A stretch of DNA of 64,000 nt, from NCBI GenBank assembly GCA_947034895.1, contig OX344764.1:10478001-10542000 (forward strand). The letters run 5' to 3'. The DNA is from Rhytidiadelphus loreus. Its lineage: Eukaryota; Streptophyta; Bryopsida; Hypnales; Hylocomiaceae. Of this stretch, positions 949-52,003 are shown in pieces; position 1 is the stretch's first letter, and every line of letters starts with the position of its first letter. The translations under genes and the position numbers were made by a program. The notes under the pieces were generated by a model that was given only the letters and a program-made list of their open reading frames with translations, was not told the origin of the DNA and made no database searches.

Positions 949-1403
949 GTAAGTAAATCTACTCTCCCTTCACATTTGCTACCTCTTCGCAATATTGTGT
1001 ATTGGCGATACCATTATTATACCTACTGATGTATTTGGATGTGGTAGTACGTACTTTCGTAAATCAGGTAGTTATCCTCAAAGTAAATGAGTTCTACAAA
1101 TAATCTCACCACCACATTAGGTATGAAATTTTGATAGATCACTTCTCCTAAACACGAAGACTAATGGTCGGACAGTAAGCTTTGTAGAATCTAAGACATT
1201 GAGTGTTGGTTCAATCCTTGTGCAAGTTCCTAAGAGGTTAGGGTTCGTAGTCATCCTTCATTGAAGGACCGAATCCTTAATCACGGATCACTGACGTATT
1301 TCTTGTCAACACGAAGACTGAAATGGCAAGAAGACGAACCACTAGGAGCGCGGTCGCGGAGGCTCAGAGAAGTGAAGATCACGATATGAACAGCAACGAT
1401 GAG

Positions 1404-1574
1404 GAAGAAGGGCCGCCTCAGGTGAACACGACGGATGCACGGCCAAGTACGGGCTCTAAGGAAGAAGGGCCGCATCAAGTGATCACGATGGTTGCACCAC
1501 CAACTTCGGGCTCTGCGGAGGAGAGGCCAGATCAAGTGAACACAACGGATGAACTGCCAACTGCGGGCTCTGAG
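1404..1574 (+). repeat. Three 57-nt in-frame repeats in exon 1
   Basis: Three consecutive 57-nt units encode 19-residue repeats beginning EEGPPQVNTT, EEGPHQVITM and EERPDQVNTT. Each ends in a Gly-Ser-X triplet. The third ends exactly at the exon 1 donor at 1575. The units make a flexible acidic/polar N-terminal tail. Confidence 0.8.
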
Positions 1575-1737
1575 GTAATCGTCATTCCACCATCACTAGA
1601 AATCCTAGACGAGGGCAGAAACATGAATACAGAGTAAACTGGATTGCTTGATCGTTTTGGGGGTTTGTCCCGCAAATGTAAGTCTCCGATAGAGATTCTC
1701 GAATTTTGTTTTAGGGTAAGGCTACCCCCGACCAAAC

Positions 1738-2923: not shown

Positions 2924-5900
2924 ACCGCGAAAGTTATCCTCCAACAATGCATTTGTCTATGTAATGATCTTTTTCGTTGTCCGTTATGTTTCAGGTGCAA
3001 GTAGGTGGACCGGTTCGAGTTTCGGATTCTTCAATGGAGAGTATCACACCTGCTGTCAATGACCTCGTGATCGTGAATATTGACCAAGACATGGGGGAGG
3101 CTCACGAGGAATTCAAATCCGAGGATGCCTATAGGAGGTCACAGAAGGTGAATTCTGTGGCCTCCATCGCCGACTTACGTCTGAAACCTACTTCCATATC
3201 TCGGCTGCGGATTCCGTTATGTCGCCTTGTCCAGATGCCCATGGTTAGACCCGCACTTCAGAGTGATTTCACGAAATTGGAGTAGGAGTTCGTTCATGGG
3301 TATAGAGATGGATCAAATGTTTTTTATGTGTCACTCACTAATGAGCAGGGGGAGACTGAGATGGTGTCTGATGCGGAAAGAGAGGCTTGGGGGCCAATGT
3401 GGAATGAAGAGAATGACATCTTCAATGCGATTCTGGACGCCACACCTGGTTTGCAGAACATCAAGGGGTCTAAGTTCTTCGTTTGTGATGGAAACCATAG
3501 ACTTCTGGCGTGGACCTCTTATATCACTAAACACCACGACCATGAGAAGGATTGGCATATATCAATGGACTCGATCATTCTTGACACGAAGGGCAGGATT
3601 GGTGATGTCATGCATGCTATGCACGACATCAATAAGTAAGTGCTCCCATTCAGGCATTTTTTTATTTTTGGTTTACAATGTAATCATTTAAGATGATTTT
3701 GACGTTTTTGTTTTCTGTTTCAGGCATACGGAAAGTTCGTTCATCAAGACCAGTCTTGTTCATACGCTTTATCGTGTTCAGAAATATGGCATGCTTCCGC
3801 TTGAGAAGTTCTCAGAGCATTTGAGTGAGTCCGAGATGACTCAGTGCCACCAGAATCTCCGAAAAAGTTGGTACTCGATGTCCGTTGAGGTGTTCACTTC
3901 ATTCATCTATCGAATAACGATTCTCACAGAACGTGTGCGTATTCTTTGTATGTTTGAGTTGTGTAGAAGCATTAATCCTTCCAATGTTTTGCTCACTTCC
4001 ATGTTGTTTTGTAGTATGAGATAGCTGCGGCTGCCGACATAGTAGTTAGGTTGTATAGGGAAGAGACACCTGAGGATCTGCAGTCAGAGGCGGGTATCTT
4101 GGCTGCCATGAGGTTAGGTACGAAGGAGAAGACAGCAAGGTTAGTGCAGAAGTTGGGAAAGCTGACTGCTGTGGCCAATCCCAATCTGGGAAATGAGTGG
4201 CTCCAGGAGGTATGATGACATTTCTTTAGACCTCTCGTTTTTGTCTTCTTCTCGTTTCATTTAGTTTATTCAGCTTCAAGTGATTTATGCTTTCAGATCG
4301 AGCGTCATTGGAACTCCAACATCACTCCCGAAATGACTCTGGAGAAGTTGCAGTTGATTGCAACATGCAGTGTGAGCAAGGAGCATAAGGTTAAGTGGCT
4401 TACATGGTGGAACTCATCAGTTCAAACGAGGGAGGCAAGAAGGTTCCCACTGAAGCCAGCTAGAGAGATAGAACTGAAGTCTTTCCTATCGAAGGCGTGC
4501 TGATATGCAGGGGTAAGTGTTTTTAGTTCATTTCATTCATGTTTTAGTCATCTCGTTTTCGGGTTGTGATCTAGTCCACGGTGACATTGGATGGTTAGTG
4601 CAATTTGGATTGCGATGTAATCTATTACTATACATGACAACTTTTAATGGCCTTGCAGATACAAGACACGGGAGCTGAAATGTTTGATAACATTGTGAAG
4701 AAAGACCAGTTGAAGTTAGCTATGGACTCTCCCCAAGAGCCCGAGACTTTTCCAGAGTATGTTGAGGACTGGAGAATTCGAGTGTGGGACCACGCTTTCT
4801 TGCCCCAATTTCGGGGACACGATGTCTTCAGAAAGTCAGATGACTTCAAGAAACACAAGGGCTCTGATCTAGTTGTCAAACGGGTGATCTACCGGTGAGA
4901 ATTTGATATCTTAATGCCATTGTGATATGCTTCATTAAGTTTGTTTACTGTCGATATTTAATCATTTTCTGTATTCTGAAGAGTTTGGTCTATACAGGTA
5001 TTTCAAGTATGAACTGTTGCCTAAGGGGGCAATTGCAAAGCGCGATCTACCTGCGTTTTTGGGAACATGGTTGGATGTTTCATCAGAGCATTGCATGTTC
5101 TCGGCATCGCAATTGAGATGGTGGACGAGTTTGCATTTGAAAACCGGTGCGTGGTATTTGGATTGCCCGCCGGAATTCACGCCGTTGCTTGAGGACCATT
5201 TGAAGCGGTCGATCAATACTGATGCTGTGGTTCAAGATGTTGACGAGTTTGCCGGCCTTGATGACGATGCCAAGGCAAAGGCAATCAAGAGGAGAGACGA
5301 CGTCGACAAGAAGATTGCACTCAAGAACTCCGAGGCGGTGGACAAGGCAAAGGAGAGAGCCACAAAGAAGACAAAGAAGCTTACTGAGTCGGAGCAAGTA
5401 CTAGCGGCGGAGAAGGGAAAGGGGAAAGGGAAGAATGCCGAAGAGGGTGTCTTACGTTCATCCACAAAAGACGAGGGCTCCCAACATCAACGCTCCAATT
5501 CACGTGGCACTAAGCGTGATTCTGAGTATGCTTCACTTAGCAATGACGAGATGCAACATGGTCCATCCGCTGTAGAGTACCTTCAGGATTCGGAGATATC
5601 GATTGCCGAGCTGGTTCTAAATTACTCTCTTACTGATGTCTTGGCCGATCCTCTACCCCAAGTATACCATGACATTGTCAGTTTTGTTGACAAGGTTCGC
5701 ATTTTCACTTTCTTCCATTTTTTACTTTGGTTTTTGCTCTTTAACATTATTGGTCTGTTTGCTAATTGATTAAATCATTTTGCAGCACAAAGGAGAGAAG
5801 GAGCGTTTTTTCCGTGGTGTTCGGAGTGATAAACCCCGAGTGGACCTCGTCATTGCGGACATGCCCGAGGGTTTGCCTGTCCCAGGTCTATCGGCACCTG

Positions 5901-7385
5901 CACATACTGTTCCGAAATGGAACATGGTCCACCCTTCTGGGCTAGAGGCGGTGTTCGAGTTTGCTGATGGTCATTTGCACGATGACGGTGCGTTACTCAT
6001 TATTCATTCTCGGAGTCCTGTCGTCAAGGCTACGATTTTGAAGTACGCTCCAACATATTCGTTTAAGAAGATGAAGGATTGGTGGGGAACGAATTGGCTT
6101 CATTTGGCCTCACCAATCTCTACTGGATGTACGGTATGATCATCCTTCACTTTTCCCTATTTTATTCATGGATTCGTCTTCTCTTGACAAAAATGCTATC
6201 ATTCTTGAATATGACATAATGTACTATAGGTGGTGTATTTTTTGTTTACTTCTATTTTGATTCTCTTAATTGATTACATTTCTACTTCTATGGATTTGTT
6301 ATGGCAACTAATAGTTCATATTTGATCATTCAATTTGGACTAATTCACCGTGTATCTCTTCGCTCTTGTAGACTCAATTCTTCCGTGTCATGTTGCTGGT
6401 CAGGAACTTGGATGGTATTGGTCCTTCCAAGTTTCAATTCCAGCCATGCCCAAAGTTGAGGGAGCTAGGAGTAGATGTGGCAGTTGATGATGTTATTCAG
6501 AATTTCACGAAGAAAGAGACATTGACCATGGATAGCAAATTCAAGCCTTGGAGGGGTGCAAGAGAAAAGGATCCCCGATTCATGCAGATGTTGATAGAAG
6601 CATCAACGTTTGCCAATGATGTTGTTATTGATTGCACTGCTTCGACCGGTATGTGCATGAGCATTCAATGTCTTCTATTGTTTTTGTTGATCCAAATTTT
6701 TTCTTCAATTCTCATTGAGTTTTGTAGTAATTGGATTTGTTTTGTTTTGTGGATTAGGGGCTTCCATCCACGCTTGCAGGATTTCGAGCAGGCACATCAT
6801 TGCACTTGAAGAAGACAAAGCCATTTTTGAGGCAATTTTGGCCCCAATGATTCGCGCACCGAAAGATGTTCCACCTATAGTCGTTGCCGTTGTACAGGAT
6901 TCTGACGATGATGAAGGTCAGGAAATTGAAGTTCCCCACATCGTGAAGAAATCTCATTTCAGTAAGTAAGTCTACCCATGCTTGCTTTTTTCCAAAATTT
7001 CCTAGAGATAGATGTCTACTATTCATTATTTTCACTTCAAGTTTTTCTTCCAAGCTTCTTTCATTGTGAACGTGAACTTCTTGCCATTCCTAATTATCAT
7101 TTTTTCATTTGCAGCATGACTTACAATTTGGTGGCTCTCCGGCCATTTTTCACTCTACCATCTTTTTTTCCAAGCCCGGAGAAGCCCTTTTTGTTGCCAT
7201 CATATGCAGAGGCTGTCGTTGGGACATTGGCCTGTCAAGAGGATTTTTGTAGACGGAGAAAGTCTAAGTCTTTAGACCCTACAATTCTGCAATTTATAGA
7301 TGAGACAGCTCTAGAATCAGAGCAAGAGATCTCATCCACTGAGAGTAGTGACAACTCTCATTCTATGTCTTCGTCATCTACATGA

Positions 7386-9581: not shown

Positions 9582-9798
9582 CACTATAAGAAACCCATGT
9601 TTTAGGTGATGTTTTATAATTTTTTTAAACGAATTTTAGGTGACATCCATTGCAACAAGCCCATGTTCTTATGTCAACAATACGTCCAACATAACATCAA
9701 TGATTACATAAAAACATGGGCTTGTTGCAGTGGACGTCACCTAAAATCTGTTTAAAAAAATTACAAAACATCACCTAAAATGCGGGTATCTTCTAGTG
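9582..9798. mobile_element. CACTA-type MITE, 217 bp, 3-bp TSD
   Basis: The element starts CACTATAAGAAACCC and ends with the inverted form GGGTATCTTCTAGTG. The two arms match imperfectly over about 80 bp, including GTTTTAGGTGATGTTTT and GCAACAAGCCCATG, leaving a loop of about 50 bp. TTT flanks both sides, consistent with the 3-bp target duplication of CACTA elements. It has no coding capacity. A sister copy with a TSD of different sequence lies at 41,058-41,273. It sits just downstream of the stop of the minus-strand transposase. Confidence 0.85.
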
Positions 9799-9885
9799 TT
9801 TTGGAACTATGCTTCTTCAAACACTTGAGGTCACACACATTATTCTTCAGAATGTACGCACAAGCACTACACTACAACTTATATT

Positions 9886-12800
9886 TCATTGTTCCATGTG
9901 TGCATCTTGTTCCATTGCTGTTGCAGAAGCGACCGTAATGTACGTTCCCCCTACATTTGTTGGTTGTCGACGACACTCGGTTGGCAACACTAGCGGTTGC
10001 AAGCCAATGAAGTCTGCGTCGCTTCCAACATCAATAATGCGGTTTTGTGAATCTGGAAGTTCTAACTGCCCACGTCTACCACAAACATCTGTTCGACAGA
10101 CCACCTTCCACCCACGTTTGTTGGGGTCCTCTGAAAAAAACACTTGTTGGCAATGTAATGGGAACGCGAAGGAATCAGCGTGCACCTTTCCATCCATGCG
10201 GTTGAAGTTCGCAATAGTGAATCCATATTGGTCCCTCTGTACACTTGGATACCGTGTGTCTTCAGAGCTACGAACCCAATCGCACAGTAGCACTGTTGTG
10301 CAGTGATTGCGATAATCCAACTCCAAGATCTCTTCAATGTACCCTACGTAATCATCAATCCTTTCAATGGGGCGTCCGTTAACAAGTCCCCATCGAAGTT
10401 GGCTTGTGAAGGACGCCACAACACACGAATCACGAGTGACAAGTCCAACTTCAGAACTACGAACGCGTAGATGCATTCCACAAGCGTACATGTGTCGATG
10501 CGATGTTGCGTACCGTTCAGGCGGACGTGCATATTGTAAAATGTCGTTTGGTACGTCTTCACCAGCTAGTTCTGCTGCATCTACTCTCTCGCTCAACCAG
10601 TCTGCAAAATTGGGAAATTCCTTTAATTCTATTGGATAGCGTGGTTGTTGTGGTGGACGGCGTTGCCGACAATCCAAGCGAAATGCCTCTCGTTCTTCCC
10701 AACGTCTGGCCTTCTGGATGACATACTCTCTGCACATCATACGTCGTTTTCATTTGTTGCTATAAGCATACTACATTGAATCTTGCAAAGCTAGTGATAC
10801 TACCATCAATGAAATCATCATTGTTATAATCATTGGAAGACATGCTGAAATATGCATTCACTGAACATTGCAGTGTATGGTCCAAAGACTTACTAGCGCC
10901 AATCTTCCAAAATCGCTGCATTGTCAAGGACAAACGCATGTGCAAAGTTTCGCACTTCGTTAGACATTTTACGTTTTGCACGCTGATTACAACGTAGAAC
11001 CTCATCATTCATTGTTGCGTCTTCTTCAGCATCCCACACACGATGTGTTGTTCCTCTATATTGCTTCATGTACTCCGTACAGAAGCCAAGAGTATCGTCG
11101 AGGCGGTAACCTTCAACGATGCTTCCCTCGGGATGTGCATATGTTCGAACATAGTCCTTTAGTGTCTTCATGTACCTCTCGATAGGATACATCCAACAAC
11201 AGTGCACCGGTCCGCAGACAAAAAGTTGCTGCACTAGATGCACGGGAAGATGTGACATTATGTTCAAAAATGTTGGTGGAAACTCCTTCTCCAACTCACA
11301 TGTCGCCATGATGACATTGTGCAAGAGCTCCTCTTTCTCGGACTCACGGACCTGTTTCTCACAAAGCTTCTGGAATACTCTAGAAGTTCGAATGATTGCT
11401 CTTCGTACATTTTCGGGGAGTACGTTTCGTACTGCCACAGGAAGAATCTACAGTCAATAAGAAATTGTAATTGTCAAGTTCTCGAGGAACTTCCAAATTC
11501 CAACACATACGCAAGTTGTATTCCAAGCCAATGTTTCAAAAGAATTGCTACTAGTACAATCTATACTCTGTACAGTTGTTTCCAGAATATATATATATAT
11601 ATATGCATGCATCAAATCTTTTTACACATACCTCATTGACGCAGCGTTAGTGCAAATTTTAAATACAACAATGTGGATTCTATGCAGATACAAAGTTATG
11701 AAGGATCATCACATTTTCAATGGCAACATAATTATGCTACATCCACCTATAATGCAGAAATGTAGCCTCTTCATATGATTATGTACTGTACCTGCTGCAT
11801 GAGCACATGGTAGTCATGCGTTTTCATGTACTGCAGTTTACCGTCCATGAATCTCTTGTGAATGGAACCAACGTAGTTTGAAGGCGTACGGATGTTTGCG
11901 ATTATGTCCATAAACTGCTTTCGTTCATCTGGTTTCATTACATACGGCGGAGGCGGCATGTAGTATTCTTCACGTCCTCCTGCTTGAGCTTGCAACCATA
12001 TTTCTTCACGGATTTGTAAGTCTTCTACATCTTGACGACTGCCCACACTGTCTTGAAGACCCATTATCATTTTCACAATATTCTCACACAAATTCTTCTC
12101 ACAATGCATTGGATCCAAGAGATGTCGCTCAAGTAGATGCTGAACACAACAATGTCATATGTCTTTTATACGTCATGAAGTTACTCTTTCTACATCCTTG
12201 TGAAACTTCAATTGACACATGCATGTTCTCTATAAGATTAAGTGATTCCATGCACATCTACCACATAGCGCACGGCCTACCAATATATGAAAACGTACAG
12301 TTCTTTTGCAACATCAGAACAACGAGCAAGAAGTATGTATTGTATCGTCATTTCCACATTCTAATGGCATTACTAGGCAGAAGAGCAATAATTTCATTGT
12401 AGTGCACAATATACACTAGAAGTAGAAGGAAGTTCAACACATTCAGTTCATGTGTTTGATTAAGCTTATATTTCTGTGCAATAGAAGGTGAAGCATACAC
12501 AAACCTGCCAGTAAGGAAGTTCGTACAGTGCACTCAATCGTTTGACACCCGTGTAGTGCACTAGATCAGCCTGTGCGTTTTCCTTTCCGCCTAGATCAAG
12601 GTATGACTGTCGCCACGCTGCATACCTTATGATGTCCACAAACGACATTATCGGTGGCGCTGAACGTCGTTCTACTTGACCATTGAATCTTTTGTTACAT
12701 CGGTATGGATGTTGTCTATTGAGATACCTTCTCATTCCACCATATACAATCTTAGAACCACGAATGCGTCCACTTGCTAGAAGATCCCCAGTTTTTGCCA

Positions 12801-14304
12801 TTCTGGAATCCGTTTCTGGTCCACAACAAGGACACCCACGATAACCCTTACAACAGAGCCCTGATATTAGCGCGTACGCTGGATAATCAGATATGGTCCA
12901 CATGAGCAAACCACGAACTGTGAATCCTCGAGAGCCTTCGGGTTGAGAGAAATCTATTGCTAGGACACCTACCCACAATTCCTGCAACTCATTCAATAGT
13001 GGGCGTATATAGACGTCAATGTTTTTGGATGTTGGAGATAACTTCCCGGATATGAGAATGCACAACGAAATGAAGAACTTCTTCGTAACAAACCAAGGCT
13101 TGAAATTATATATCAGTATCAGAACGGGCCAGGTTGACCAATTTGTATTACTTAGTTTGAATGGATTAACACCATCCAACGCTAATGCCAACCGCATGTT
13201 CCTTTTCTCCAATCCAAAGTTGTTGAAAGCAACATTTGTGTCAACATGCTTCCATGCTGGACTGTCAACCACTGAGCGCATGATGCCGTCTTCACTAACA
13301 TGCTTTGTGTAACCAGTCAACATGCTTGCAATTTCCTTTGACCTCCACATGCGCTTCAATCTAGGAATGAGGGGAAAGTGCCGTACAATCTTCACTGGAA
13401 TTGCATCCGTGCCTTCCACCCAACGCGATTTAGAGCACTTCGGACAACAGTTCAAATCTGCATAGTCGTTGTCAAAAAGCACACATCCATCTGGGCACGC
13501 ATGGATGTTTCTGTAATTCAAGCCCAATCTACTAATGTTTTTTCGAGCTAAATAATGAGTACCTGGCAATTTGTTGTCCGATGGCAACAAATCCTGTGAT
13601 AAGTAACGTAGTAGCTCGTTTGTGAATCTGTTGCTGACACGAAACACTGCACACATATTCATGATGATGATTGTTGCTGATACCACACTTGTTTTGACCC
13701 CGCATACACCGGTGTTGTAGCTTGGTCATATAACTCTTCCAGTCCATCCAATGTATCAGCACCGTTGTCCTCATTCTCTTCAACGTCTACGACTCCAACA
13801 GCATCACGGTGTAATGCGTCGCTTCTGTCCAAGGCCTCCATCACTTGCCTTTGCACCTCGTGTAATTCATCCAGTGCGGTGTTGTCATCATTCTGAGCAT
13901 CCTCTTCGTGCACGTTACATAAATCCATGTTCGGTACGTTTGGGTCATCATGTAACATTCCTGCAGCTTCTGCATCATGTTGTACAAGGTCGTCATCATA
14001 AATTTCATCTTCTATCCATATTCCTTGACGTGGGTATCTGTTCGGAGGATCACCTCCTATCATGGACTTCAGTAGGAACGGATCTCGCCCCACAGCTGTA
14101 AGGTGCTTTCTGATTATGTCAATACTCTTCCGCCGTCCACCGTGACAGTCTCTACAAGGGCATCGGTATGCTCGGATGTTCTGCTCGGTTGCTACTCGCA
14201 ACTCAGTTTCCAAGATCAAGTCGCCGACCGGAATGTGACGTAGTGTACGTCCATCACTAGAAATGCGGACTGTTGCAAGTTGATGTACTGCATGCATCGG
14301 CATG
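9886..14304 (-). pseudogene. CACTA TNP2-like transposase, element 1 (damaged)
   Basis: Read on the minus strand, the exons are 14304-~13690, ~13690-12505, 12139-11792, 11447-10894 and 10759-9886. Domains in order are the transposase-associated N-terminal domain (CPCRDCHGGRR), the catalytic TNP2/Transposase_21 domain (LALDGVNPF, WSTWPVL, LLDPMHCEKNL), DUF4218 (FPPTFLNIMSHLPVHL, WMYPIERYMK) and DUF4216 (VGYIEEILELDY, VFFSEDPNKRGWKVV). This is the usual plant CACTA transposase order. It has one more intron than elements 2 and 3, falling after the HDYHVLMQQ motif. Lesions: a one-base frameshift near 13,690, where the N-terminal frame must move to continue into the catalytic domain, and a TGA at 10,750-10,752 where elements 2 and 3 have TGG (K-W). 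It is therefore probably inactive. Confidence 0.85.
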
Positions 14305-17281: not shown

Positions 17282-17347
17282 ACTTGGAATATGTAGATGT
17301 CTAAGTGTACGTCGACAAGGTCACTGAAAAATTGAACTGGTCCTATT

Positions 17348-17930: not shown

Positions 17931-17939
17931 GGTCCTATT

Positions 17940-33112: not shown

Positions 33113-33234
33113 TCCAAAACTTGTTTGGCAAGAAGGACAGGCTCCAGCCTCTTCTGTACCTCCACCACGTTCTTGTCCCTTCGAAGCTCGTATGAGCCTT
33201 TTGATTGAGGAGGGCTGCTAGGTGCGTCGTCCAT
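33113..33234 (-). CDS. Possible first exon of a minus-strand gene, unrecognised
   Basis: The frame reads ATG at 33234 on the minus strand and opens a 122-nt segment that ends at a good donor (GTAAGT). The peptide contains KGSYELRRDKNVVEVQKRLE, a charged helical pattern like the start of several plant transposon-linked proteins. It lies upstream of, and divergent to, the plus-strand transposase of element 2, the position a TnpA-like gene has in element 3. A following exon may start near 33,050 but soon hits a stop, so the gene is probably decayed or the call is wrong. Confidence 0.3.
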
Positions 33235-35370
33235 CGGAGTGTATTCAAACGTCAGTCCTCTGCAATAGAGCGTACTTTAGCAATCGCAATTGTGTTGTTG
33301 GCACAAGGGAAACAAGGGAAACTACCAATTGGAACTGCAGTATAGGGCTTCAAGCATGAGGGCGCAGAAGCGCAAAGGAGAGAAATCGTCGGAGCTGATT
33401 TACCAATCGTCCTCGAAGTTCCGCACCAGCCGCCAAGATCGCCGTCGCTAAGGTGTTGTCTGGGAGCCACTTCTGAGTAGTTGCAAGCGCACGCGTTCTA
33501 TACAAATGTCAGGCAAGGTTAGAGAGGTGCAATTAGGCGGACGATCATCAATTTCTAGGCTTTGCAATTATTTCATGCTTCCTTCACAGTTGAAAGGGTC
33601 GACCTGATCAACCTTCTCTTGATTTCAGGAGCACTATTGTAACTTAAAACGCGAAGTCATTCAGATGTTCTGATGATGAGACCAACGGTAGTGGGGAGAG
33701 AAAGATTGATTAGGCGTTAATGACTGTGAACGGCATTAACTACTACTGTACTCCTAGTTCAAGTCCGGCGGCAGGGTATTCCTTCACTACTATGTGAAGT
33801 TGTATTTGACGACTAAGTCTTCACTACGGTAAGTCACCTTTCTGTCACTTTTTTCATTGAGGACTCTTAAATGACTTACGGAAGTCATTTAAGAGTTGTA
33901 TCTAAGTTGACTAGCAGTCGTTCAAGTATTCTTTTCTGATTTTTGTCAGGCCCATGGCGGCAGTAGGTTTTAGGGTTTATAGTGACGTGGCTAGTAATTG
34001 ATTCTCTTCCATGACAAGTGCAACATGAGACATTTCCATAGAGACCCATGTCTGAGTATGCAACAAGTGAACGTCGATTGACGAACTGCATTGTTTGACC
34101 CCCATGGTTAAAAGAATCGTGTCACTGTAAGTGATGAAAAAAGAAGGCAGAAATTACGATATATGGAGGTCATGACTCCATGAATGTGAAGTTCTAGTCC
34201 ACCTGGTATCTTCATCCTCTAAGTATCATGCAAGCATGCTTGTAGTATTTTGTTGTACACATGCTGGACAGTCACTTGTCAGTACATTCTGTCATACATT
34301 TAATTTATTGAATTGTTGGCGGCACTTACACTCTTATGTGCATGGCTTTCAGGGACGAAAACTTTTCTATATTGTTCACCAGAGAAACACACATTGCCAT
34401 CCCCCGCCGCCACGTTTCATTGAAACTTTAGCATCACGGAGCTATCACGGAGTTCAAAATGCAATGTGATGGTCAATCTTATGAGAAGACATTTACATCC
34501 CCATTTGCTGTGAAGGGGACATTGAGCTGTTAGAGACTCACGCTTTGTCTATCATTTCCAAATTATAACGTCGTGCCATATAATTGTAAGCATTTCACAA
34601 CAGTTCCACACTTTGTCGTGCCCAATAGTTACACATTGGAATGTCAGTTCTGCTCTAGACAAGTAGACATACGAAAGATGAAATTCTTTGATACTATGTT
34701 TCGAGATTCAAGCTAGAAGTTGAGAAAACACTCATTCCATGCAAATGTGCGTGTGAGGCATATCAAGCGAATGTGACAATTCTCTTGAGAAGTTGCAACA
34801 ACTGTAGTCAGAGTTGCAACAGAGTCGCTCTGACTGAAAATTACCCTACATACTTGCGTAGGGGGCCAATGAATCTAAAGGAGGCGTAAGTTGTTAATAC
34901 ATAACAAGTGTCATTGGCAATTTAGAGATTGTAAGGTCAATGTGAAGGGGGAGGGCATTCATTTACTTTTTTGTAAGGTCATTCCAAATTCCTAAAACCG
35001 CATTCATTGCGAGTTCATTTAGGTGTCTTAGTTCAGTATTCTTGCAGGATTTGTACACATTAAGTGCATCTACCACTGTCAAGTAATTTTATGGTAGTGC
35101 ACCAAAAAATAGTCAATTTTGACTATGCATGGCATAGACGTCTGCATGGCGAAGCTTGAACACGATAGTCCTTTGTATAGTCATTCTGTAGTTGCATGAG
35201 ACATTATATTAAAGTCATTCTATTGTTACTCACAAAACTTCTGAATCACTCCATAGAAACTCATCAGTCATTTTCTTGTGCTCACTAGAACTCTCACGCA
35301 TCCATTCTAGTTCCCTGCAAAATGATTCCTTGTTCTAACTTTTACGTATGTGCTAATTGCAGCTAACATC

Positions 35371-38300
35371 ATGATTCCTGCTAGACTGCCCTTGTCTGAT
35401 AGTTGTCGACAAAGACTCCATGACGAGCGCCTATGGATTCGAGAGCAACAGCGGGCAGTCGATTACAATGTCAAGAAACTACATTGTCCATGCACCGAAT
35501 GTCATGGGCGTAGGAGATTATTGCTCCGGAATGTACGGAAGCACCTCATTCAAAACGGTAGACATCCACACTGTAGGGTTTGGAGAGGATCTGGTACTCG
35601 AGACTCCTCTGATGAGGAGTGGGACGAACAACTGTGGGAACCACTTCAGGAGGTCCCGTTGCAAGTGGATGTCGATGTGGATACTCGCGGCATGCTCCAG
35701 CAAGCTTCGCTACAGGTGGAACAAGAGGAAAGTAACACAATGAGAGTGGAGCAAGAGGTTGCCGATGCTTTTGCAATAGCAGACTCCATGCATGAACGTT
35801 GCATGCAAGAAGCCCCACCTGATAATGCAGAAGTAGAGAGTGCTGAATGTGAGGAGATTGCTGGAGATGGAGGAAGTGAAGAAGCGAACTTTGATGCAAC
35901 GGCATTGGAGGAATCCATGGAGCCATTGTATGATGGTTGCAGGTCCAGCAAGCTAGCAACTACTGTGCTCCTTATGAATCTATGCACGGTTCATGGGGTG
36001 ACCAACTCTTGCGCCAATGAACTCTTTAGCTTATTGCACCTCCATCTTCTACCAGAGCAAAACACTTTGCCAAAGACCTACCATGCAGCAAAGTCTATAA
36101 CGGCAAAGTTGGGCCTCACTTATAACAGCATACATGCTTGCGAGAGAGGATGTGTTCTCTTCCGCGGTGAGCATGAGAATGCTCTCCGTTGTCCTAAATG
36201 TGGCGGGAGGAGGTACAGGGACGAAGAACGCCATCGCTTCCCATTGAAGGTGCTTCGTCACTTTCCAATTATTCCACTCTTGCAGAGAATGTATCGAAGT
36301 CCCGCAATATCGAAATTGATGCTCTGGCACGTAGAAAATAGAAGTGACAAGGATGGAGGGGATGGACTTGTTAGGCACCCTTGCGACTCTAAGGCTTGGC
36401 ATCATTTCCACATGAATGTGGATCCGACATTTGCAGAGGATCCGCGGAATGCTCACTTCGCTTTAGCAGCAGACGGAGTGAACCCCTTCAAGCAGAACCG
36501 GTCCTCTTGGTCAACGTGGCCAGTTTTATTGCTGAATTATAATATCCCCCCATGGCTGAGCACTAAAAAAAATTTTGTACTACTCTCACTATTAATTCCT
36601 AGGAGGGAATCCGTGACCTCTGACGTGTTTGATGTGTACTTGGAGCCCCTTGTGGAGGAGTTGTTGGAACTTTGGGCTGGAGTCCCAGCATACGACATCT
36701 TAAAGGATGTTGGTAATAGGTCATTCCAGCTGCGCGCCATGCTCCTCTGGACTATTCATGACTTCTCGGGCTATGGCACAGTAGGTGGATTTTCTCATCA
36801 AGGGTATGCAGCATGTCCGTGGTGCGGTGCAGACTTAGGTGCTGAGCATTCTGTGGAGCTTGGGAAGTGCACGTATGGTAGAACTAGGCGCTGGCTACTT
36901 GAAGATCATCCTTATAGATCGGCTTTCATGAAAGAGCACTTCAATGGCGCCATTGAAGAACGGCCTACACCACGTGAAGTTATAGTGCAAGAGCAAATGC
37001 AGCATGCAGCGGACTTTGAAGCTTGGAAAGCAGCTGGCAATCGAGATGGTGCCACTAGTGACCCCTCAAAATTGCACGGCGTGAAGCGTCTAAGCATTCT
37101 CTACAGATTGCCTTATTGGCAGGTGAGCAAGACTTATCATTTTCCATGAAAGTCACACTTGCACAACTGTGTACCAACACGAAAGTCACTTAGGAGTCAC
37201 TTACGAGTCACTTACGAGTCACTTTGTAGTAGTCGTGAAGATGAACTCCAAGTTCATGACTCTTGTATGACTGTGCACTTTTCACAATTACAAGACAAGG
37301 CGTGGCCTTGTAAAGTGCTATGGGTTGTCAGTTGTAGGTCATCCTAGATGACGTAGCCATCACTGTATGGTCAGTAAGCAATTTTTTCTTCTTCGTCATG
37401 TTCCTATTGTAAAGTGGGTGATGCTTATTGTTTGTCGAGGACCATATCTAACTACCATTTTTGCATGACCTCATGCTTGGCAGTATCTACTCATTCGCCA
37501 CACATTGGACACGATGCATTGTGAGATGAACTTGGCCAAGAACTTTCTGAAGACCATAACAGGGAAGAAGGACACCGTGAAGGTTAGAAGGGACTTACAA
37601 AGGCGGAATATAAGGCCTTACCTATGGTTGTCTCCAAATCCGCGGAAACCAGGAAAGATGGTGAAGCCTCGAGCACCATATGTTTTGGCTGATGATGAGT
37701 TTGAAAAGTTTGCTCGTTGCATGGAGTCCTTGAAGACGCCAAGCGGGTACTCCTCGGACTTGGGCAAGTGCATTCGCAAGATGAACTTTGGCGGGCTGAA
37801 GTCCCATGATTACCACGTGTTAATGCAACAGGTGTTGCCATTAGCATTGCGTGGGCTCATGCAACCTGGACCACGTATGGCCATCATGAGAATGTGCAAA
37901 GTATTCCGTCGCTTGTGCACCAAGGTCTACAATCCAGCAGACTTTCCTTCTCTCCAACTTGATGTCGCTGAAAGCATGGCGTTGTTGGAGATTGAATTTC
38001 CACCATCTTTCTTCGACGTAATGACTCATCTCCCCTATCATCTTGCAAGGGAGCTAGACCTTTGTGGACCAGTGAGTGCAAGGTGGATGTATCCCGTAGA
38101 AAGGTACATGAAAGTTCTAAAGAACCACGTTCGTAATATGGCGCGTCCAGAGGCATGTATGGCGGAGGGATATTTGAAAGACGAGTGCATAGGCTTCATT
38201 ACGGAGTACCTACACAAGTTTGAGGCCACAGAAAGACGTGTATGGGATGAAGATGAAGAGTACGGTGACACTGAGGAAGTAGTACAAGGTGCTGGCAAGA

Positions 38301-39412
38301 CATACGTCATGAGTGCCGAGTTACGAGATACAGCCCACCAATACGTACTTGCAAATGTCTCTGTCATGCAAGACCTACATACGTAAGTGCTTTGACACAC
38401 CTATTGTCTATCCGCGTAGTACAGTGCCATCACTGATTTCATTGTTGTCCAATGTTTTGGACATCCGATATTCCTAGTCAACAGTGAGTCGTGTCCGTTG
38501 TTTTATAACTGGAACACAACTCCATGATGACTGATTGCAGTCACATAGAAGTCATAGTGCATCGGTACTACTAGTATTGTTGTGTGATAGTCGTGGCAAT
38601 CCCTTTTCTATTCAATATCCATGCATGTGTACTCTTTTTTTTGGTGAACAGGCAATGTGTATGCATACAGAAAGTGGAGCGATGAAAAGCATGCAAAACC
38701 GAGGACTCCTGCACTCGCAGAATGGATCGAGAGTACTGTCCAGAATGCAGACTTGAATTTAAGGACCCCGGAGGATATGGACCGCTTGTTGCTAAGCAAA
38801 AAGCCATCACGAAGAGCATGTCGCTATTCCCGGATCACGGCGTTTGGCAACCACTTCCGAGTAGAAGACGAGACTACCAACCGATTGGTGTGCTACAACA
38901 GCGGTGTGGCTTCTATGTTTGAATTGCCACTGGAGACTGTTGGTGCCTTGTCTGTAAACTATGTTGGAGTGTTGAAGGACATCTTGCAGCTGGATTATGG
39001 AGCCTTGCATACACAAATCAATCTCATGCGATGCGAGTGGGTGAAGCCCCAAGATAGTCGAGGAAACCCAGCATATATCCGTGATGAATCAAGCTTCGTT
39101 GTGGTGAACTTCCGCCACAAATTGCCACGCATGGCGGAGCCATTCATTTTTCCAAGTCAAGCTACCCAAGTGTTTTTCTCAGATGCTATAGAGAAGCCTG
39201 GGTGGAAAGTTGTTTTACGAAAAGAAGCCAGAGCTCAGCGAAAAGTAGTGGAGACCACGGATGCCTTCATTAGTACAACGGTAGAGACTATAGGACTGAC
39301 AGCTCCTCAAAGGTGGCCAACTCCTCCGCAAACAGTGAATTTTGTGGGGGCATTGAATTATCTGCCGAGGAAAACTTATTGGCCCATGAATTGTATTAGG
39401 CTAATGAAGTAA
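35371..39412 (+). CDS. CACTA TNP2-like transposase, element 2 (intact reading frame)
   Basis: Three exons, 35371-37122, 37484-38382 and 38671-39412, join in phase to 1,131 codons including the stop, with no internal stop or frameshift. Domains by residue: transposase-associated domain (about 20-80; HCPCTECHGRRR), TNP2 catalytic domain (about 200-600; ERGCVLF, CPKCGGRRYRD, ALAADGVNPF, SWSTWPVLLLNYN, CPWCG, then RHTLDTMHCEMNL after the first intron), DUF4218 (about 700-830; FPPSFFDVMTHLPYHLAREL, WMYPVERYMK) and DUF4216 (about 975-1070; VGVLKDILQLDYGALH, FRHKLPRMAEPF, FPSQATQVFFSDAIEKPGWK). The ATG at 35371 was chosen because it follows an acceptor-like TTGCAG and aligns with the start of the element 3 copy. 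It would cut and join CACTA ends as a nuclear DDE-type transposase. It is potentially active. Confidence 0.88.
37186..37260. repeat. Subterminal-type AGTCAC motif cluster within tnp2 intron 1, element 2
   Basis: Several copies of GAGTCACTTA-like units follow one another, ending in GTAGTAGTCGTGAAG. They match motifs near the element ends (40,690-40,745). Similar clusters lie in the same intron of element 3. Confidence 0.6.
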
Positions 39413-41057: not shown

Positions 41058-41273
41058 CACTATAAGAAATCTGCATTTTAGGTGGCGTTTTGTAATTTTT
41101 TCAGACGGATTTTAGGTGACGTTGGAAAAAACAACTTGTATTTTTTCACGTCCAATATAGCATTTGGATGTTATATTGGACGTGAAAAAACACAAATTGT
41201 TTTTTCTGACGTCACCTAAAATCCGTCTGAAAAAATTACAAAACACCAACTAAAACGTGAATTTCTTATAGTG
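41058..41273. mobile_element. CACTA-type MITE, 216 bp, TSD CAT
   Basis: The element begins CACTATAAGAAATCTGC and ends TTCTTATAGTG. Arms of about 85 bp are inverted copies, including TTTTTCAGACGGATTTTAGG and TATTGGACGTGAAAAA. CAT lies directly before and after, a clean 3-bp target duplication. It is the same family as 9,582-9,798. It lies about 300 bp upstream of copy B of the ParB-methyltransferase gene. Confidence 0.9.
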
Positions 41274-43145
41274 CATGGAACTCAACGGTGTGTTGATCAA
41301 CACATGTGCCTGCATGACCAAGTGCCACGTGTAGCTGAAGCACGTATCTGGTTCTGAGATGATCCACCTGAGAAGGTAAACCCTAGCATGCAAAATTGCC
41401 TCGCAAGGAACCCTATCTTTCTTCCTCGTTTTCATGTGGTTCTCCACCTCTGAGGCCATTGTAGGTAGACTTGTCGCATTTGTTCATGCACAGGGGCTCG
41501 GGAGTTGAATTCAATTGATGCTGCCGTGGGCATTTGCGGGCTTCCTATCGACCATTACAGTGTCCGTAATGGTAGAGCGGATCTTGAGATCCAGAAAAGG
41601 TCAGGCCACCATTGTCGATGTTGGAGAAACTGCGACAGAAATACAAGATCAGCAAGAAGAGGTACATTTCGTCCAACTTGACACTCATCACATTTGGATA
41701 TTGTGGTAATAAATGGGTATCCAAATATCTCCAGTAATAGTAGACAATTGTGTTTGGGTGTCGGGAATGATGTGGTTGAGTAGGGCGTTGAGGAATTTTG
41801 TCCCGGTCTCAGTCCTGGGGAAGGTCAAGCCTGCAAGACGATCTTGCCCCATATTCTTTTTAGAGTGTGGGGCATGTGTATTTGTCTATCGGGATTGTCG
41901 TGAATGAGCAGGGCGTTGTGATACTCATGGCCCATCTCGGTCCAGAGACCGACTCGAGGGAGGCATGGCTTGCCCCATTTTATTTTTGCAATTCGGGGCG
42001 TGTGTTGATGTGTGTCGGGTCTGTCGTGGTGAGCAGGGCACTCTGGCACTCAAGCCTTGTCTCAGTCCCGAGAGCGACCGGGAGGGAGGCATTGCCTTTC
42101 CCCATATCATTATTTTATTGTTGGGCATGTGTATTTGTGTAGCAGGGCGTGTGTGTTTGTGTATAGGGCTGTCGTGGTGAGTAGGGCGTTATGGCTCTCA
42201 GGCCTCGTCTCGGTCTCGAGACCGACATGGAGGAAGGCATTGGCTTGCCCATATTATTTTTTCAGTTTGAGGCGTGTGTTGATTTGTGTCGGGGTTGTGT
42301 GTACTTGTGTGTCTGGATTGTCGCAGTGAGCAGTGAGTTGTGGCATTCATGCCCATCTCGGTCCTGGGGAAGGTCGGGTTGGCAGGACGACCTTGCACCA
42401 TATTATTTTTGGAGTACATGGCGTGTGTTGTTGTTGGTCTGGGCTGTCGTGAATGAGCAGGGCGTTATGGCTCTCAAGCCTTGTCTCGGTCCCGAGATTG
42501 ATAAGGAGGAAGGGATGGGCTTGCCCCATATTATTTTTTCAATGTAGGGCTTATGTATGTGTGTGTCGGGGTTGTCTACTTGAGCAGGATGTTGCGGCTA
42601 TCAGGCCCCACCTCGGTCCCGAGACCAACAATGAGGAAGGCATGGGCTTGCCCCATATAATTTTATCAATGCGGGGTGTGTGTATTTGTGTGTCAGAGAT
42701 GAGTGTGTTTGTACATCGGGGTTGTCGTGTTGAGCAGGGTGTTATGGCACTGAGGGCCCGTCTCGGTACCGAGACCGACCGGGAGGGAGGCTGCGCCTTG
42801 CCCTATATCATTATTTGATTGTGGGGCGTGTATTGATGTGTGTTGGGGTGTGTGTATTTGTATGTGGGGGCTATCAAGTTGAGCAGGGCATTGTGGCTCT
42901 CAAGCCTTGTCTCGGTTCCGAGACCGACAGGGAGGAAGGGATGGGCTTGCCCCAAATTATTTATTCAATGCAGGGCGTGTGTATTTGTGTGTCGGGGTTG
43001 TCAAGTTGAGCAGGGTGTTGTGGCTATCAGGCCCCATCTCGGTCCCGAGACTAACAGTGAGGGAGGCATGGGCTTGCCCCATATCATTATATTATTGTGA
43101 CACGTGAATTGTTGTGTGTCGGGGTTGTGTGTGATTTCTATACTA

Positions 43146-43642
43146 AGGCCTTATTCATTATAATTGGACAATCGACAGATTTTGAGACTTTTTCCCTAAA
43201 ACAATTGTATGGATTTATCCTCGAGTCGAGGATAAATTGAGACTGCAACCTTTTGGCAATGAAAGGTTCTTTTACATAGTAATATTTTAAAGTCTCAAAT
43301 TTCCAGATAGTCTCAAAATTGAATAGTTATGACTGTTTATCCTCGAGTCGAGGATAAATTAAGACTGCAACCTTTTGGCAATGAAAGGTTTTTTTACATA
43401 GTAATATTTTAGAGTCTCAACTTTCCAAATAGTCTCAAAATTGAATAGTTATGACTGTTTATCCTCGAGTCGAGGATAAATTGAGACTGCAACCTTTTGG
43501 CAATGAAAGGTTTTTTTACATAGTAATATTTTAGAGTCTCAAATTTCCAAATAGTCTCAAAATTGAATAGTTATGACTATTTATCCTCGAGTCGAGGATA
43601 AAATTGAAACTACCATTTGTCCAAATATAACAAATAAGGCCT
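43146..43642. mobile_element. Small non-autonomous element (PIF/Harbinger-like) splitting the copy B array
   Basis: The ends are inverted copies over 26 bp with three mismatches, starting AGGCCTTATT and running to TTGGACAA. Flanking triplets are CTA and TTA, close to the TWA duplication of PIF/Harbinger elements but not identical. The tandem array resumes in phase after it, which shows it is an insertion. Its interior is built from 122-bp repeats. Confidence 0.65.
43214..43602. repeat. 122-bp repeats with a 23-bp palindrome inside the inserted element
   Basis: A near-perfect palindrome (arms TTTATCCTCGA and TCGAGGATAAA around one G) occurs at 43214, 43336, 43458 and 43580, exactly 122 bp apart. 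The intervening sequence is almost identical between copies, so the amplification is recent. Confidence 0.9.
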
Positions 43643-46600
43643 TTATTAGGGCTGTTCGGTGAGCAGGGCGTTGTGGCACGGAGGCCCTTTTTCGGTCCCG
43701 AGACCGACCAGGGCAGATGGAAAGGCCTGCTCCGTAATTGTGGTTTGCTTTGCCTACTCGTGGAGATACTTAGTTTCGGTTCTAGCTAAACAATTGATCT
43801 CTTGTTGATTTGAAGTAATACTAACATTTGACATGATTTGTATACCGAACCAGGTGGGCATGGCGTCAGCAGAAGTGCAGACCCACGAACGTCAAGTTGA
43901 TAATATATTAGAGATGCCCATAGACGGTGGCAAAGAAGTTAATGTCATCTTCATGCAATCTGAGTGACAATTTGTGAGTATAGATAATGTAATTAGGGAC
44001 ATAGATGAGGTCTCATCGTATTCAATTGTCGATCCAGACATTCATATTTTGTGTTGCAGACAGTACAGGTCATTAAGTTTCCAGTGCATTCCTGATTTGT
44101 GACGAGGCTTCCCTGTAATTTTACATATATTTTTTGTTCAATTGTTACATAATTTTTTATTTTAGAATATGACTCCTATAGATTTACAACTGTCATTTGT
44201 GTATCTAATCAATGGTCGTGTATTGTATTTTGAATATCACAGGAGACTGCACAGGCACAGGCCATGGCCAAGCCACATCCTGCCACTATTTCATCAGTAG
44301 TGGAGGTTGATGACGAACCTGAAAGTATTTCAGAGTCTGATTCAGATGACAATGGGACCCTTGGAGTGTTGAAGGACGCCTTGGAAGATGACATCCGTAA
44401 GACCCAAAAGATTGACACTGTGTCTATTCTACATGGATTGAGATTGACATCCACGGACGCGTCTCGAATGAAGATCCCATTGTGCCGAATGATTCCTATG
44501 CCCATGGTCCGCCCGACTCTATCTTGCGATTTGACACTACTCGAACACCAGTTCAGTGGTGGATACGAAGAGGGGGCTAGAGTCTTCTACGTGTCAATCT
44601 CAAATGAGGAAGGGCATACCAGGGTGTTTTCTGCTGAAGAAAAAGAAGCGTGGGGGCCAATTTGGAATTCTGTCAATGACGAATTCAATTCATTTCTGAG
44701 GTCCCAACCTGTTGTGAAACATCTTGTGGACTATAAATTCTACGTGTGTGATGGAAATCACAGGAGGATCGCATGGATGAACCACATCAAACGGTTGCAT
44801 TCAACGAAGAAGGGGTGGCATATCTCGGTGGACTCCATTGTGCTGGATATGGCAAACCAAACTGGATTGGCAATGCAAGCAATGCATAACATAAACAAGT
44901 AATGCTTATAATCTTTATTTTTACATTGTATACATGTTTCAATCTTGTGAATACTATGGAAATTTTGTATTCCCACAATTGACTTCATGATTGTTTATAC
45001 AGGCAAACGGAGAGTTATCACGTGTAGACAAATCTCGTGCATATCCTATACCGTGTTCAAAAGTACGGAGTTATGGACCTTGAGAAGTTTAAAGATCTTC
45101 TAACAGCCGATGAAGTGAAGACATGCCAGAATAATACACGTGTAAAGTGGTACAACATGGCACTTGAGGTTTTCACGTCTTTCATATTCAAGGTAAGATT
45201 AATTCAAGTACTTGAATCATTTCTAGGAGTCGTCTAAGTATATTGCTTCATTCTATTAACATTTCCAATTGCATGAAATGTGTGTCTCAACAAGAAATCT
45301 CGGCGGCGGCGGAGATTGCTATTCGAAAGTACAAGGAAGATACCCCTTATGATGAAGTGACAAAAAAAGGTGTTGCAAAGGTGATGAGGGCATCGATAAA
45401 AGATTCCACTGACAAGTACTACAAGAAGCTATCCAAGATTGTTTCAGTCGCCAACCCAGCTCTTGGACCCGAATGGCTAAAAGAGGTTTGTTGGAATTCA
45501 TCAAACAATACTCATCATGAATATTAATTGGAATTCAAATGCACTAACTAGTTTGGCATTGCATCTCACAGATCGAAAGGCATTGGAATCTGTTTGCTAC
45601 TCCCGAGTTGAGTCTTGAGAAGTTGCAAATGATATCAACTTCAAATGCTACATCAGAGTCAAAGGTAAAGTGGCTGAAGTGGCTGAACTCATCTGGACCT
45701 ACTAGAGAGGCCCGCCGTTTTCCACCACGTCTGGTGAATGAAGAAAAATTAGCGCTATTTTTAGCGAGGGCATGCTGGTACTCAAGGGTAAGGACATCTT
45801 GTTATCATTCTAACATTTTTCCAAGACATCACAGTTTTTTAAAATTTAGACTACTCTTTGCGTTTTCCATCACTTTACTTCATTTCCAGTCAATACTACT
45901 TCATATGAAAATTCACTTTTGATCATGTATGCTTGCAGTTGGAGGACGCTGCTACTGAGTTGTATGACACAATTATTCGTTCGGATAATATTCCAATAAA
46001 TATGGCAATTCCCACTGAGCCGGTAACTCTAAAAGAATATTTAGAGGGTTGGAGAATGAAGGTTTGGGATATGGCGTTCACGGGCATGTTCAGAGGGGGG
46101 GACGCATTCAAGAAGTCAGACACCTTCAAGGATTACAAGGGGGCAATGCTTGCAGTTCATCGGCTAATTTTCAGGTTTCACTCACTCCATTATTAGATTG
46201 ATTGATATGTTATAATGATACCAACATCAAATTGCAGGAGTCATAAGTCTATTTTTTCCTCATATTACTTTGTGCAATGTTCATTAGTATAAGGTGATAT
46301 CTTCTTATTCATTAATATCGAGACTATTTTTCATTCACAGGTCATGTCTCTTTGTGCAAGATGATCACCCTATTTGGGTTCCTCTCGGGACCGAAAGGAC
46401 CTTTCATGTGTCCTAGAGTCTACAACATTGGATTTCTATTGTGAGTACGAAAACGATCCCATATTTACTTAGAATAATTATTAGATGACTTATTCTTTTC
46501 CGGGTTTAATTGAACATGTATTTCATGTATGAGTTGTATACCAAGAAGGCCATTGCCAAACAAGATTTGCCGCCTTTTATGACGACTTGGTTGGATAGAT

Positions 46601-48698
46601 CAAAAGACGACTGCATGTTCTCAGCTTGGCAACTACGGAATTGGACGACTCCACATCTCCAAGCCTGCCCTTGGTATCTTGAATGCAATATTGGATCCAT
46701 TCTACTTGAGGAGGCTGATCTTTTCAAGTCATTGAAGGAGAACGCTCCTGTGGAGGCAGATTTTGATGAATTCGCCGGACTTGATGCTGAGGCCCGTGCT
46801 AAGGCTATCACAAAACGAGATGCAGTTGACAAAAAGAAATTGGAGAGACTAGAAGAGGCAAAAAAGAAGACAGAAGACATCAAGGCGAAGAGGTTGGCCT
46901 TGAAGGTTGAGAAGGAGGAAGAGAAGGCCAACAAGAAAAGCAAAAAAAGGAAGGCTGAGACTGCCATGCCAGCTACAAGTGCAGTTGACTTGAAGGACAC
47001 CTCCTCGAGTTTTTCTCTCACACAGGACCGCTTGGTGCATGGCCTGACGCCCACTGTTCTGAATTTGGATCATGCCCATGACATTGACGAGTGCATCTTG
47101 AACATTTCATTACGAGCTCTTCCTGCGGACGAAAAGGCGATGGACAACGTCGAAGCCTTCATAACAATGGTATTTGTATGATTCTGTTTGGCATATTTTG
47201 TATTCCTTGTAACACAAGGTAATGAAACTTGTATTACTTGATTTCTAATAGTTCAAATTTAACATCTCCCTCCAATGAACTTTTTTCATTTTCTCACTAT
47301 CCTCTTGTCATTCAAATGTTTTGGTGCAGCATGCCACTGACAAACAAAGGTATTTCGATGGTGTATTCAGTACAAAACCTATGGTGGATTTGATAATTGT
47401 CGACGTTCTTGAAGGACTTCATGTACCTACCGTCTCGGCTCCTCCTGGTCCTATTCCTACTTGGAACCAGTTTTCAGAAGATTGGTTGGTCCCAATCTTC
47501 GACTTTGCTCAAGGTTACCTTCAAAACAACGGAGGTCTTCTTCTAATGTATCCATCTCCTTCTAAACTACATAGAAGCCAACTTCTTGGGTGTTGCAAGG
47601 AATACGGGTTCAAGATTCTTCTTGACTGGTGGGGCATGAACCATCTTCACTTGACATTGCCTATTCATCCAAAGAAGACGGTACTAGCCCTTTTCCATCC
47701 AATCATAATTTCTTTTCTATCTAAGATTATGAACATTCAAATCTCACTTTTAATTTTGTGCAGACTCAACGCTTCGCCATCTCGCTCGTGGTAAAGAACA
47801 CTGGCCCTAAAACTGAGGACAACTATCCTTTTCAGTATGTTCCATCGCATGCAAAGGTGGGTGTTACTGTAGGCAAAGACGATTGCCTACGAAACTTCTG
47901 TTTTGCAGAAGACGTCACCATGAATGGTGCCAAACCATGGCAGGGACCTCGGGAAAAGGCATCGGGATTCATGGCCATGCTCGTGGAGGGATGCTGTGAA
48001 CCCGAATCTGTTGTAGTTGACTGCACAGCAGGAACAGGTATTTTTCCCAACATTTTGTTAATTCCTGGAAATTTTCTTACACCCTTTAGTTTTAATTGAC
48101 ATCCTCTCGTGGTTTGGCATATGTTGGAAATGGATGCAGGAACAAGCATTCAAGCATGCCGAGCCACTCGGCGTCATATTTTGGCGTTTGAGGAAGATAA
48201 GGCGATCTTTGATGCACTTATCAAACCTGTCATTCGGCCAACTGTAGTTCCTCAAACCACAGTGACACGCCATGTAGTTGACACTCAGGATCTTGACGAG
48301 GATGATGTGCCGGCCCAACCTATAATGAAAACATCTTTCTTCAGTAAGTAAGTCTTCTTTCTAGCTTATTTAGTGATGCACATATTTGAAATCAAACTTT
48401 TGTTGACTAAAAAGACTAATGTTGCTTCACTTGTATGTATAGGCAAGCGGCAAAAGTGAGAACCATCTCACATGTTCCATTTTTTGGAAATCCCAATTTC
48501 TTCCCAAGCCCACCAAATACGTACGAACTTCCCGAATATGCTGAGTCGCTATGCAGAGAGTATGTATCCGCTGACCCTAGGCCTAGTTCTAGGGCTCATC
48601 TAGTTGATCCTCGTGTTCTAAAGTTCATAGATGATTATGCTATCGAGTCAGATAGGCAGACATCAGAGAGTGAGGGTATTTCTATGTCATCCGATTGA

Positions 48699-51984: not shown

Positions 51985-52003
51985 CCTATTTAGTCACAAG
52001 GTC

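What the first reader, a model, noticed from the sequence alone, without database searches (positions are those of the whole stretch)
1323..48698. A multi-exon eukaryotic gene family fusing a ParB-like domain to a beta-class DNA methyltransferase fold, two copies 40 kb apart
Seen: both copies have the D-G-N-H-R motif of ParB/sulfiredoxin-fold proteins, a long Lys-rich middle, and a C-terminal methyltransferase with the motif IV region before motif I (DCTAGTGTS in copy B). Four consecutive exons plus a later one (190, 195, 216, 236 and 208 nt) have identical lengths in the two copies. Known: ParB plus N4/N6 methyltransferase fusions belong to bacterial, phage and plasmid mobile elements. Inference: this family entered the nuclear genome long ago (all introns shared), spread as a repeat, and may define an uncharacterised selfish or epigenetic system in plants.
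Basis: partly seen in the sequence, partly recalled or inferred. Interest (0 to 1): 0.9.

Follow-up and report, generated by a model that had tools for sequence, protein, structure and literature searches.

The report
Eukaryotic ParB-fold plus methyltransferase-like gene family
Two decayed copies of a long, intron-rich gene join a fold known from bacterial chromosome-partition proteins to a DNA-methyltransferase-like domain whose catalytic motif is altered in a fixed way; hundreds of related sequences exist, and no named family was found that describes them.

The parts
2998..3635 (+). Copy A exon 1: ParB/Srx-like domain with DGNHR (TAG stop at 3283-3285)
3724..3913 (+). Copy A exon 2 (donor lost at this position; a GT further on would give 211 nt)
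4015..4209 (+). Copy A exon 3
4297..4512 (+). Copy A exon 4 (TGA stop at 4501-4503)
4659..4894 (+). Copy A exon 5
4998..5694 (+). Copy A exon 6, holds the Lys-rich stretch
5786..6133 (+). Copy A exon 7: methyltransferase-like half with motif IV VDLVIADMPEGLPVP
6372..6648 (+). Copy A exon 8: ends in motif I DCTAST(G)
6758..6965 (+). Copy A exon 9: after motif I, RHIIALEEDKAIF
7115..7385 (+). Copy A exon 10, terminal
44243..44898 (+). Copy B exon 1: ParB/Srx-like domain (aligned fold spans residues 74-219 of the exon product)
45003..45192 (+). Copy B exon 2 (TAG stop at 45025-45027)
45291..45485 (+). Copy B exon 3 (no AG acceptor at this position; the nearest AG gives 191 nt)
45572..45787 (+). 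Copy B exon 4
45939..46174 (+). Copy B exon 5
46518..47169 (+). Copy B exon 6 (acceptor lost; holds the Lys-rich stretch)
47330..47680 (+). Copy B exon 7: motif IV VDLIIVDVLEGLHVP
47764..48037 (+). Copy B exon 8: ends in motif I DCTAGT(G)
48140..48347 (+). Copy B exon 9: after motif I, RHILAFEEDKAIF
48443..48698 (+). Copy B exon 10, terminal

Best explanation
An old, amplified eukaryotic nuclear gene family. It encodes a protein of roughly 1,080 residues (first exon uncertain) with an N-terminal ParB/sulfiredoxin-fold domain, a middle region of unknown fold that holds a Lys-rich stretch, and a C-terminal circularly permuted beta-class methyltransferase domain. Shown: the two copies, shared introns, long purifying selection, the ParB/Srx fold of exon 1, profile homology of the C-terminus to DNA methylases, and a conserved D-x-P-E-G-L in place of [DNS]PP[YFW]. 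Inferred: the ParB-like domain binds a nucleotide and DNA as its relatives do; the C-terminal domain still binds AdoMet or a flipped or modified base but does not methylate in the ordinary way (pseudo-methyltransferase or changed chemistry), so the protein acts as a DNA-bound scaffold or reader. High copy number with local decay suggests birth-and-death turnover like that of a mobile element or its passenger. The window's copies belong to two distinct old subfamilies, and both look dead.
Against: Pfam N6_N4_Mtase scores shown (16.9 and 20.1 bits; 20.4 for copy B) are below its curated cut-off of 26.7. The phage methylases were picked from tblastn hits to the motif I half, which favours though not. 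No ParB family matches by sequence (best phrog_1033 E 0.2, copy B only; Pfam and PDB sequence none). Foldseek E-values are above 0.001 (best 0.012 in PDB, 0.0017 in viral models). The methyltransferase domain itself was not folded. Motif I is read in full from the two window copies only. The sources do not name the organisms that carry the relatives.
Confidence: 0.55

Rival explanations
1. An active DNA methyltransferase of a selfish or epigenetic element: the D-x-P-E motif still methylates adenine or cytosine, and the ParB domain nicks or clamps DNA, so that the element marks its own or host DNA.
For: Motif I half retained; strong conservation of Asp, Glu, Gly and Leu around motif IV, which argues against simple decay; large family; ParB-methylase fusions are known in bacteria (PMC5512222, passages).
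Against: The aromatic fourth residue of motif IV is Glu in 36 of 38 sequences, and the second position is Pro in 0 of 38. Replacing Ser and Tyr of SPPY by Ala abolished the rotifer enzyme's activity (PMC8885841, passages). Motif I of copy A has Ser for one glycine.
Confidence: 0.15
2. An ordinary host gene family with many paralogues and pseudogenes; not mobile, with a domestic role (for example chromatin or DNA repair).
For: Nine introns conserved between old subfamilies, and long purifying selection; no transposase, TIR or target-site duplication could be tied to the gene.
Against: 415 relatives at E<=0.1 in a database clustered at 90% identity, with groups of near-identical sequences (for example P0026/P0029/P0031/P0038 and P0078/P0088/P0114); both copies in this window are broken; another apparently decayed copy (P0148, exon 7 run into exon 9) is seen elsewhere.
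Confidence: 0.3
3. Passenger gene of the CACTA/EnSpm transposons that fill the window.
For: Both copies lie near Transposase_21 genes.
Against: Relative order and orientation differ for the two copies. The palindromes between gene and transposase are free-standing MITEs with their own 3-bp target-site duplications (TTT, CAT). Of 36 pairs of 13-bp CAC-type inverted ends (2.5-35 kb apart, at most 1 mismatch) one has a matching 3-bp duplication, and it encloses neither gene. Translated flanks of A match those of B only in the MITEs at E<0.03.
Confidence: 0.1

Closest known systems
ParB-methylase of Bacillus cereus Bce_0392 (PMC5512222, passages read)
   Same: ParB/Srx domain and adenine methylase domain in one polypeptide; nonspecific nicking activity is reported there for the ParB part.
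   Different: Here eukaryotic introns, about 1,080 residues with a long middle region, altered motif IV; no close relative among phages or plasmids. Sequence and domain order of Bce_0392 were not checked.
beta-class N6/N4 DNA methyltransferases (Pfam N6_N4_Mtase, PHROG 3008, DpnA)
   Same: Motif IV half before motif I half; profile matches over motif I and its flanks and over motif IV.
   Different: D-x-P-E-G-L instead of [DNS]PP[YFW]; D-C-T-A-G/S-T-G at motif I.
ParB/Noc/KorB and sulfiredoxin (ParB/Srx superfamily)
   Different: No convincing profile match by sequence; 90 of the 146 residues in model range 74-219 align, so about 55 are extra.
Marchantia 4mC methyltransferase and bdelloid N4CMT (PMC8885841, passages read)
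   Same: Eukaryotic genes for bacterial-type amino-methyltransferases.
   Different: N4CMT carries SPPY and a chromodomain; Marchantia's is said to have no additional N- or C-terminal domains. ParB is not mentioned in that paper (0 occurrences).
METTL14 (recalled, not from a call)
   Same: A beta-class methyltransferase fold with a degenerate tetrad (EPPL) that serves as a scaffold.
   Different: An RNA-methylation partner; no ParB domain; no Pfam MT-A70 match was listed here.

Membership tests
ParB/Srx superfamily | ParB/Srx alpha+beta fold | tested here: met
ParB/Srx superfamily | Conserved active-site Arg in a DGxxR-type motif | tested here: met
   D 77, G 77, N 78, H 78, R 77 of 78 rows. 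That the Arg is the family's pocket Arg rests on PMC5512222 (passage) and on its position, not on a residue-level superposition
ParB/Srx superfamily | Match to a ParB sequence profile | tested here: inconclusive
   No ParB family in Pfam; phrog_1033 E 0.2 in one copy
ParB/Srx superfamily | NTPase, nuclease or clamp activity | not testable with these tools
   none
beta-class N6/N4 DNA methyltransferase | Motif IV half precedes motif I half | tested here: met
   exon 7 aligns to the motif IV half, exons 8-9 to the motif I half
beta-class N6/N4 DNA methyltransferase | Catalytic [DNS]PP[YFW] | tested here: not met
   D-[MVIF]-[PLSH]-[EQD]; Glu in 36 of 38 rows with a letter there
beta-class N6/N4 DNA methyltransferase | Pfam N6_N4_Mtase at curated cut-off | tested here: not met
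   16.9 (B) and 20.1 (A) bits for the whole proteins, 20.4 for B's domain, against 26.7; bits of A's domain not shown (E 0.00011)
beta-class N6/N4 DNA methyltransferase | AdoMet-binding motif I (DPFxGxG-like) | tested here: inconclusive
   DCTAGTG in B, DCTASTG in A; profile match holds
ParB-methylase fusions | ParB/Srx and methylase domains in one polypeptide | tested here: met
   Exons 1 and 7-9 of one collinear gene in two copies; P0003 joins exons 1-3. No full-length transcript seen
Transposable element | Element ends and target-site duplication | tested here: inconclusive
   None found within one window; own genome not searchable (ten tries)
Marchantia-type 4mC methyltransferase | Methylase without further N- or C-terminal domains | tested here: not met
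   ParB domain and long middle region are present; the feature is as stated in PMC8885841 (passage)

The most novel reading that the evidence does not exclude
A still-active, self-spreading family of plant or algal elements whose protein pairs a ParB-type NTP-gated DNA clamp or nickase with a methyltransferase fold re-tooled (D-x-P-E-G-L) for new chemistry or for reading modified bases: an epigenetic selfish system of prokaryotic descent not described before.
Probability: 0.2. Interest if true: 0.88.

Novelty: new variant of a known kind. Interest (0 to 1): 0.72.

Why it matters
ParB-methylase fusions are known from bacteria and their mobile elements. An intron-rich eukaryotic family with hundreds of members, this architecture and a conserved change in the catalytic tetrad would be a new case of a prokaryotic conflict protein settled in nuclear genomes. 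It may be a pseudo-methyltransferase reader or a new enzyme, and the motif makes the question directly testable. It would also give annotators a name for a large set of unnamed and 'hypothetical' proteins.

Tried and rejected
Single-exon Pfam scans gave nothing useful. The full-length copy B protein found no homologue at E<=0.001 among the 7,992 candidates scored, probably because relatives in that database are called exon by exon; the exon-1 and exon-7 profiles worked. The search for related loci, which scans two short peptide patterns per call, gave no relative in viral contigs or genome contigs. tblastn of the ParB part of B in phages and of A in plasmids gave only weak hits (E 1 to 9). A two-sequence AlphaFold job was uninformative (pLDDT 40.5). 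The CACTA-passenger idea (note) was tested and not supported. I considered Mycobacterium phage 'DNA methylase' genes (Brusacoram gp55; Vincenzo, viral model rank 3) as direct parallels, but the N6_N4 match in Brusacoram gp55 is N-terminal, so I did not use them. A DGNHR protein lies near the best phage methylase hit (L001), but its profile comparison with exon 1 was nil (prob 3.0). Other Pfam matches of exon-1 rows were scattered and weak (best E 0.0047, KMP11; DUF6299 E 0.0053 for copy B) and were set aside as chance. The first exon at 1323 was not confirmed. The careful tree did not finish; the quick tree was used.

Literature: the listings of searches (titles and abstract starts; one showed 15 of 25, 100 showed 10 of 102) held no paper on a eukaryotic ParB-methyltransferase family; three further searches failed. 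The Iyer 2016 review on eukaryotic adenine methylation is not held, so absence from print is not established.
Full report
The window carries two copies of one long gene on the + strand, 41 kb apart. I read the exons from the sequence, located splice sites, checked open frames and joined the exons. The joined products are 1,091 (A) and 1,077 (B) residues and align at 45% identity over 1,047 columns with 3% gaps. Nine introns sit at matching positions and phases: exon lengths 190, 195, 216, 236 and 208 agree, and the rest differ by multiples of three. All nine intron lengths differ. Both copies are damaged. A has two in-frame stops and a lost exon-2 donor; B has one stop and lost acceptors before exons 3 and 6. 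The upstream ORF with an ATG at 1323 has no counterpart found near copy B and remains unverified.

The divergence was under selection for protein. Over 1,056 aligned codons the identity at codon positions 1, 2 and 3 is 0.574, 0.661 and 0.377, and 59 of 172 four-fold sites are identical. Third positions are nearly saturated while the protein is kept, so the few lesions look recent compared with the separation of the copies (inference).

The family is large. A profile of exon 1 from both copies found 415 proteins at E<=0.1 among 1,273 candidates, best E 5.9e-96 (I saw the best 120, all at E<=1.2e-73). A profile of exon 7 found 37 at E<=0.01 among 59 candidates; one of these, P0121, is 97% identical to copy A's exon 7. 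Three contig lengths (4,168, 555,475 and 63,784 bases) recur in both lists, which suggests exon 1 and exon 7 on the same contigs. In a quick tree of 122 exon-1 rows, copies A and B fall in different supported clades (7 rows, SH-aLRT 100; 31 rows, 99), and other clades hold nearly identical sequences. P0003 runs through exons 1 and 2 without the intron. Its tail is compatible with exon 3 read in a shifted frame: of 36 registers tried, six had z above 3, all in one register (z 5.2 to 6.1, none of 200 shuffles reaching the observed score). It looks like a spliced or processed sequence and supports the exon model. P0148 runs exon 7 into exon 9, apparently a decayed copy elsewhere. The sources give no organism names.

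C-terminal domain. The motif I half matches DNA methylases: phrog_3008 E 5.3e-7 for copy B, with copy A matching at a value not shown; Pfam N6_N4_Mtase E 0.00067 (A) and 0.0064 (B) for the whole proteins and 0.00011 and 0.00055 for the domain, with the bit scores shown below the curated cut-off; solved DpnA E 0.047; CcrM profile E 0.0075. Profile-profile comparison with four phage methylases gave probability 95.4, E 1.8e-8 over 64 columns of the motif I half. These phage proteins were chosen from tblastn hits to that half and their neighbours, so one search is not independent of that choice. For the motif IV half, which those hits did not cover, the 39-row exon-7 alignment against five phage methylases gave probability 76.9, E 2.1e-5 over 88 columns, laying VDLiIvDmPEGL on the phage VD-IITDPPY. 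Two comparisons of unrelated alignments gave probabilities of 1.3 and 0.7. The order motif IV then motif I is that of beta-class amino-methyltransferases (recalled).

The catalytic tetrad is different. At the position of [DNS]PP[YFW] the rows have D (37 of 37 with a letter), then M, V, I or F, then P (30 of 38), then E (36 of 38), followed by G (36 of 38) and L (38 of 38) (39 rows, the two window copies included, rows with a gap left out of each denominator). Copy B itself reads D-V-L-E, copy A D-M-P-E. The change is shared and conserved, so it is not decay of these two copies. In the rotifer N4CMT, changing the tetrad's Ser and Tyr to Ala abolished activity (PMC8885841, passages). I therefore rate an ordinary N6A or N4C methylase unlikely and a pseudo-methyltransferase or altered enzyme more likely; this is inference. 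METTL14 is a recalled parallel.

Origin and mobility. No relative was found in IMG/VR, GTDB species genomes, phages (general methylases, best E 1e-3, and weak hits) or plasmids (ParB part only). Bacterial ParB-methylase fusions are described in PMC5512222 (passages), so a prokaryotic source is the natural guess, but no donor is identified. The neighbourhood is rich in CACTA/EnSpm transposase genes; one of the Pfam families is described as 'Plant transposase' (weak match). The palindromes between each copy and its nearest transposase are free-standing MITEs with 3-bp target-site duplications. I found no ends that enclose the ParB-methyltransferase genes, and the translated flanks of the two copies match only in those MITEs. 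The host genome could not be searched in ten tries. The claim 'selfish element' stays open; 'large family with turnover' is what the evidence supports.

Verdict: a real finding. The architecture claim holds; the methyltransferase is probably not a conventional one; mobility and plant host are plausible and unproven.

Noticed in passing
9582-9798 and 41058-41273: Two related palindromic elements of about 217 bp that begin CACTATAAGAAA, with 3-bp target-site duplications (TTT; CAT): CACTA-type foldback MITEs.
   Followed up: partly
11771-13725 (-), 35326-38386 (+), 58699-61943 (+): Three CACTA/EnSpm transposase genes; Transposase_21 matched in the first two (E 1.1e-58; 7.5e-62) and DUF4218 in the second. 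The third is like the second by DNA (71-78%).
   Followed up: partly
53620-54606 (-) and 51202-51993 (-): A Transposase_24-like ORF (E 0.0034, below its cut-off) and, further along on the same strand, an NIF/FCP1-like phosphatase ORF (E 1.1e-7), with an unmatched ORF (52004-53113) between them: perhaps a transposon gene with a phosphatase domain.
   Followed up: no
1854-2916, 41843-43136, 43214-43611, 49394-49760: Tandem arrays (127 bp; 127/148 bp; 122 bp with an internal palindrome; 68/137 bp). The first ends 81 bp before exon 1 of copy A; the second and third lie within about 2.4 kb before exon 1 of copy B.
   Followed up: no
L001 3-1007 and 1611-2342: In Marine virus AG-345-E15 a DGNHR-motif protein lies one listed ORF before a DNA methylase that was the best phage match to the window's methyltransferase part. 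A 46% identical relative in Prochlorococcus phage P-SSM7 lies upstream of genes annotated dam.
   Followed up: partly
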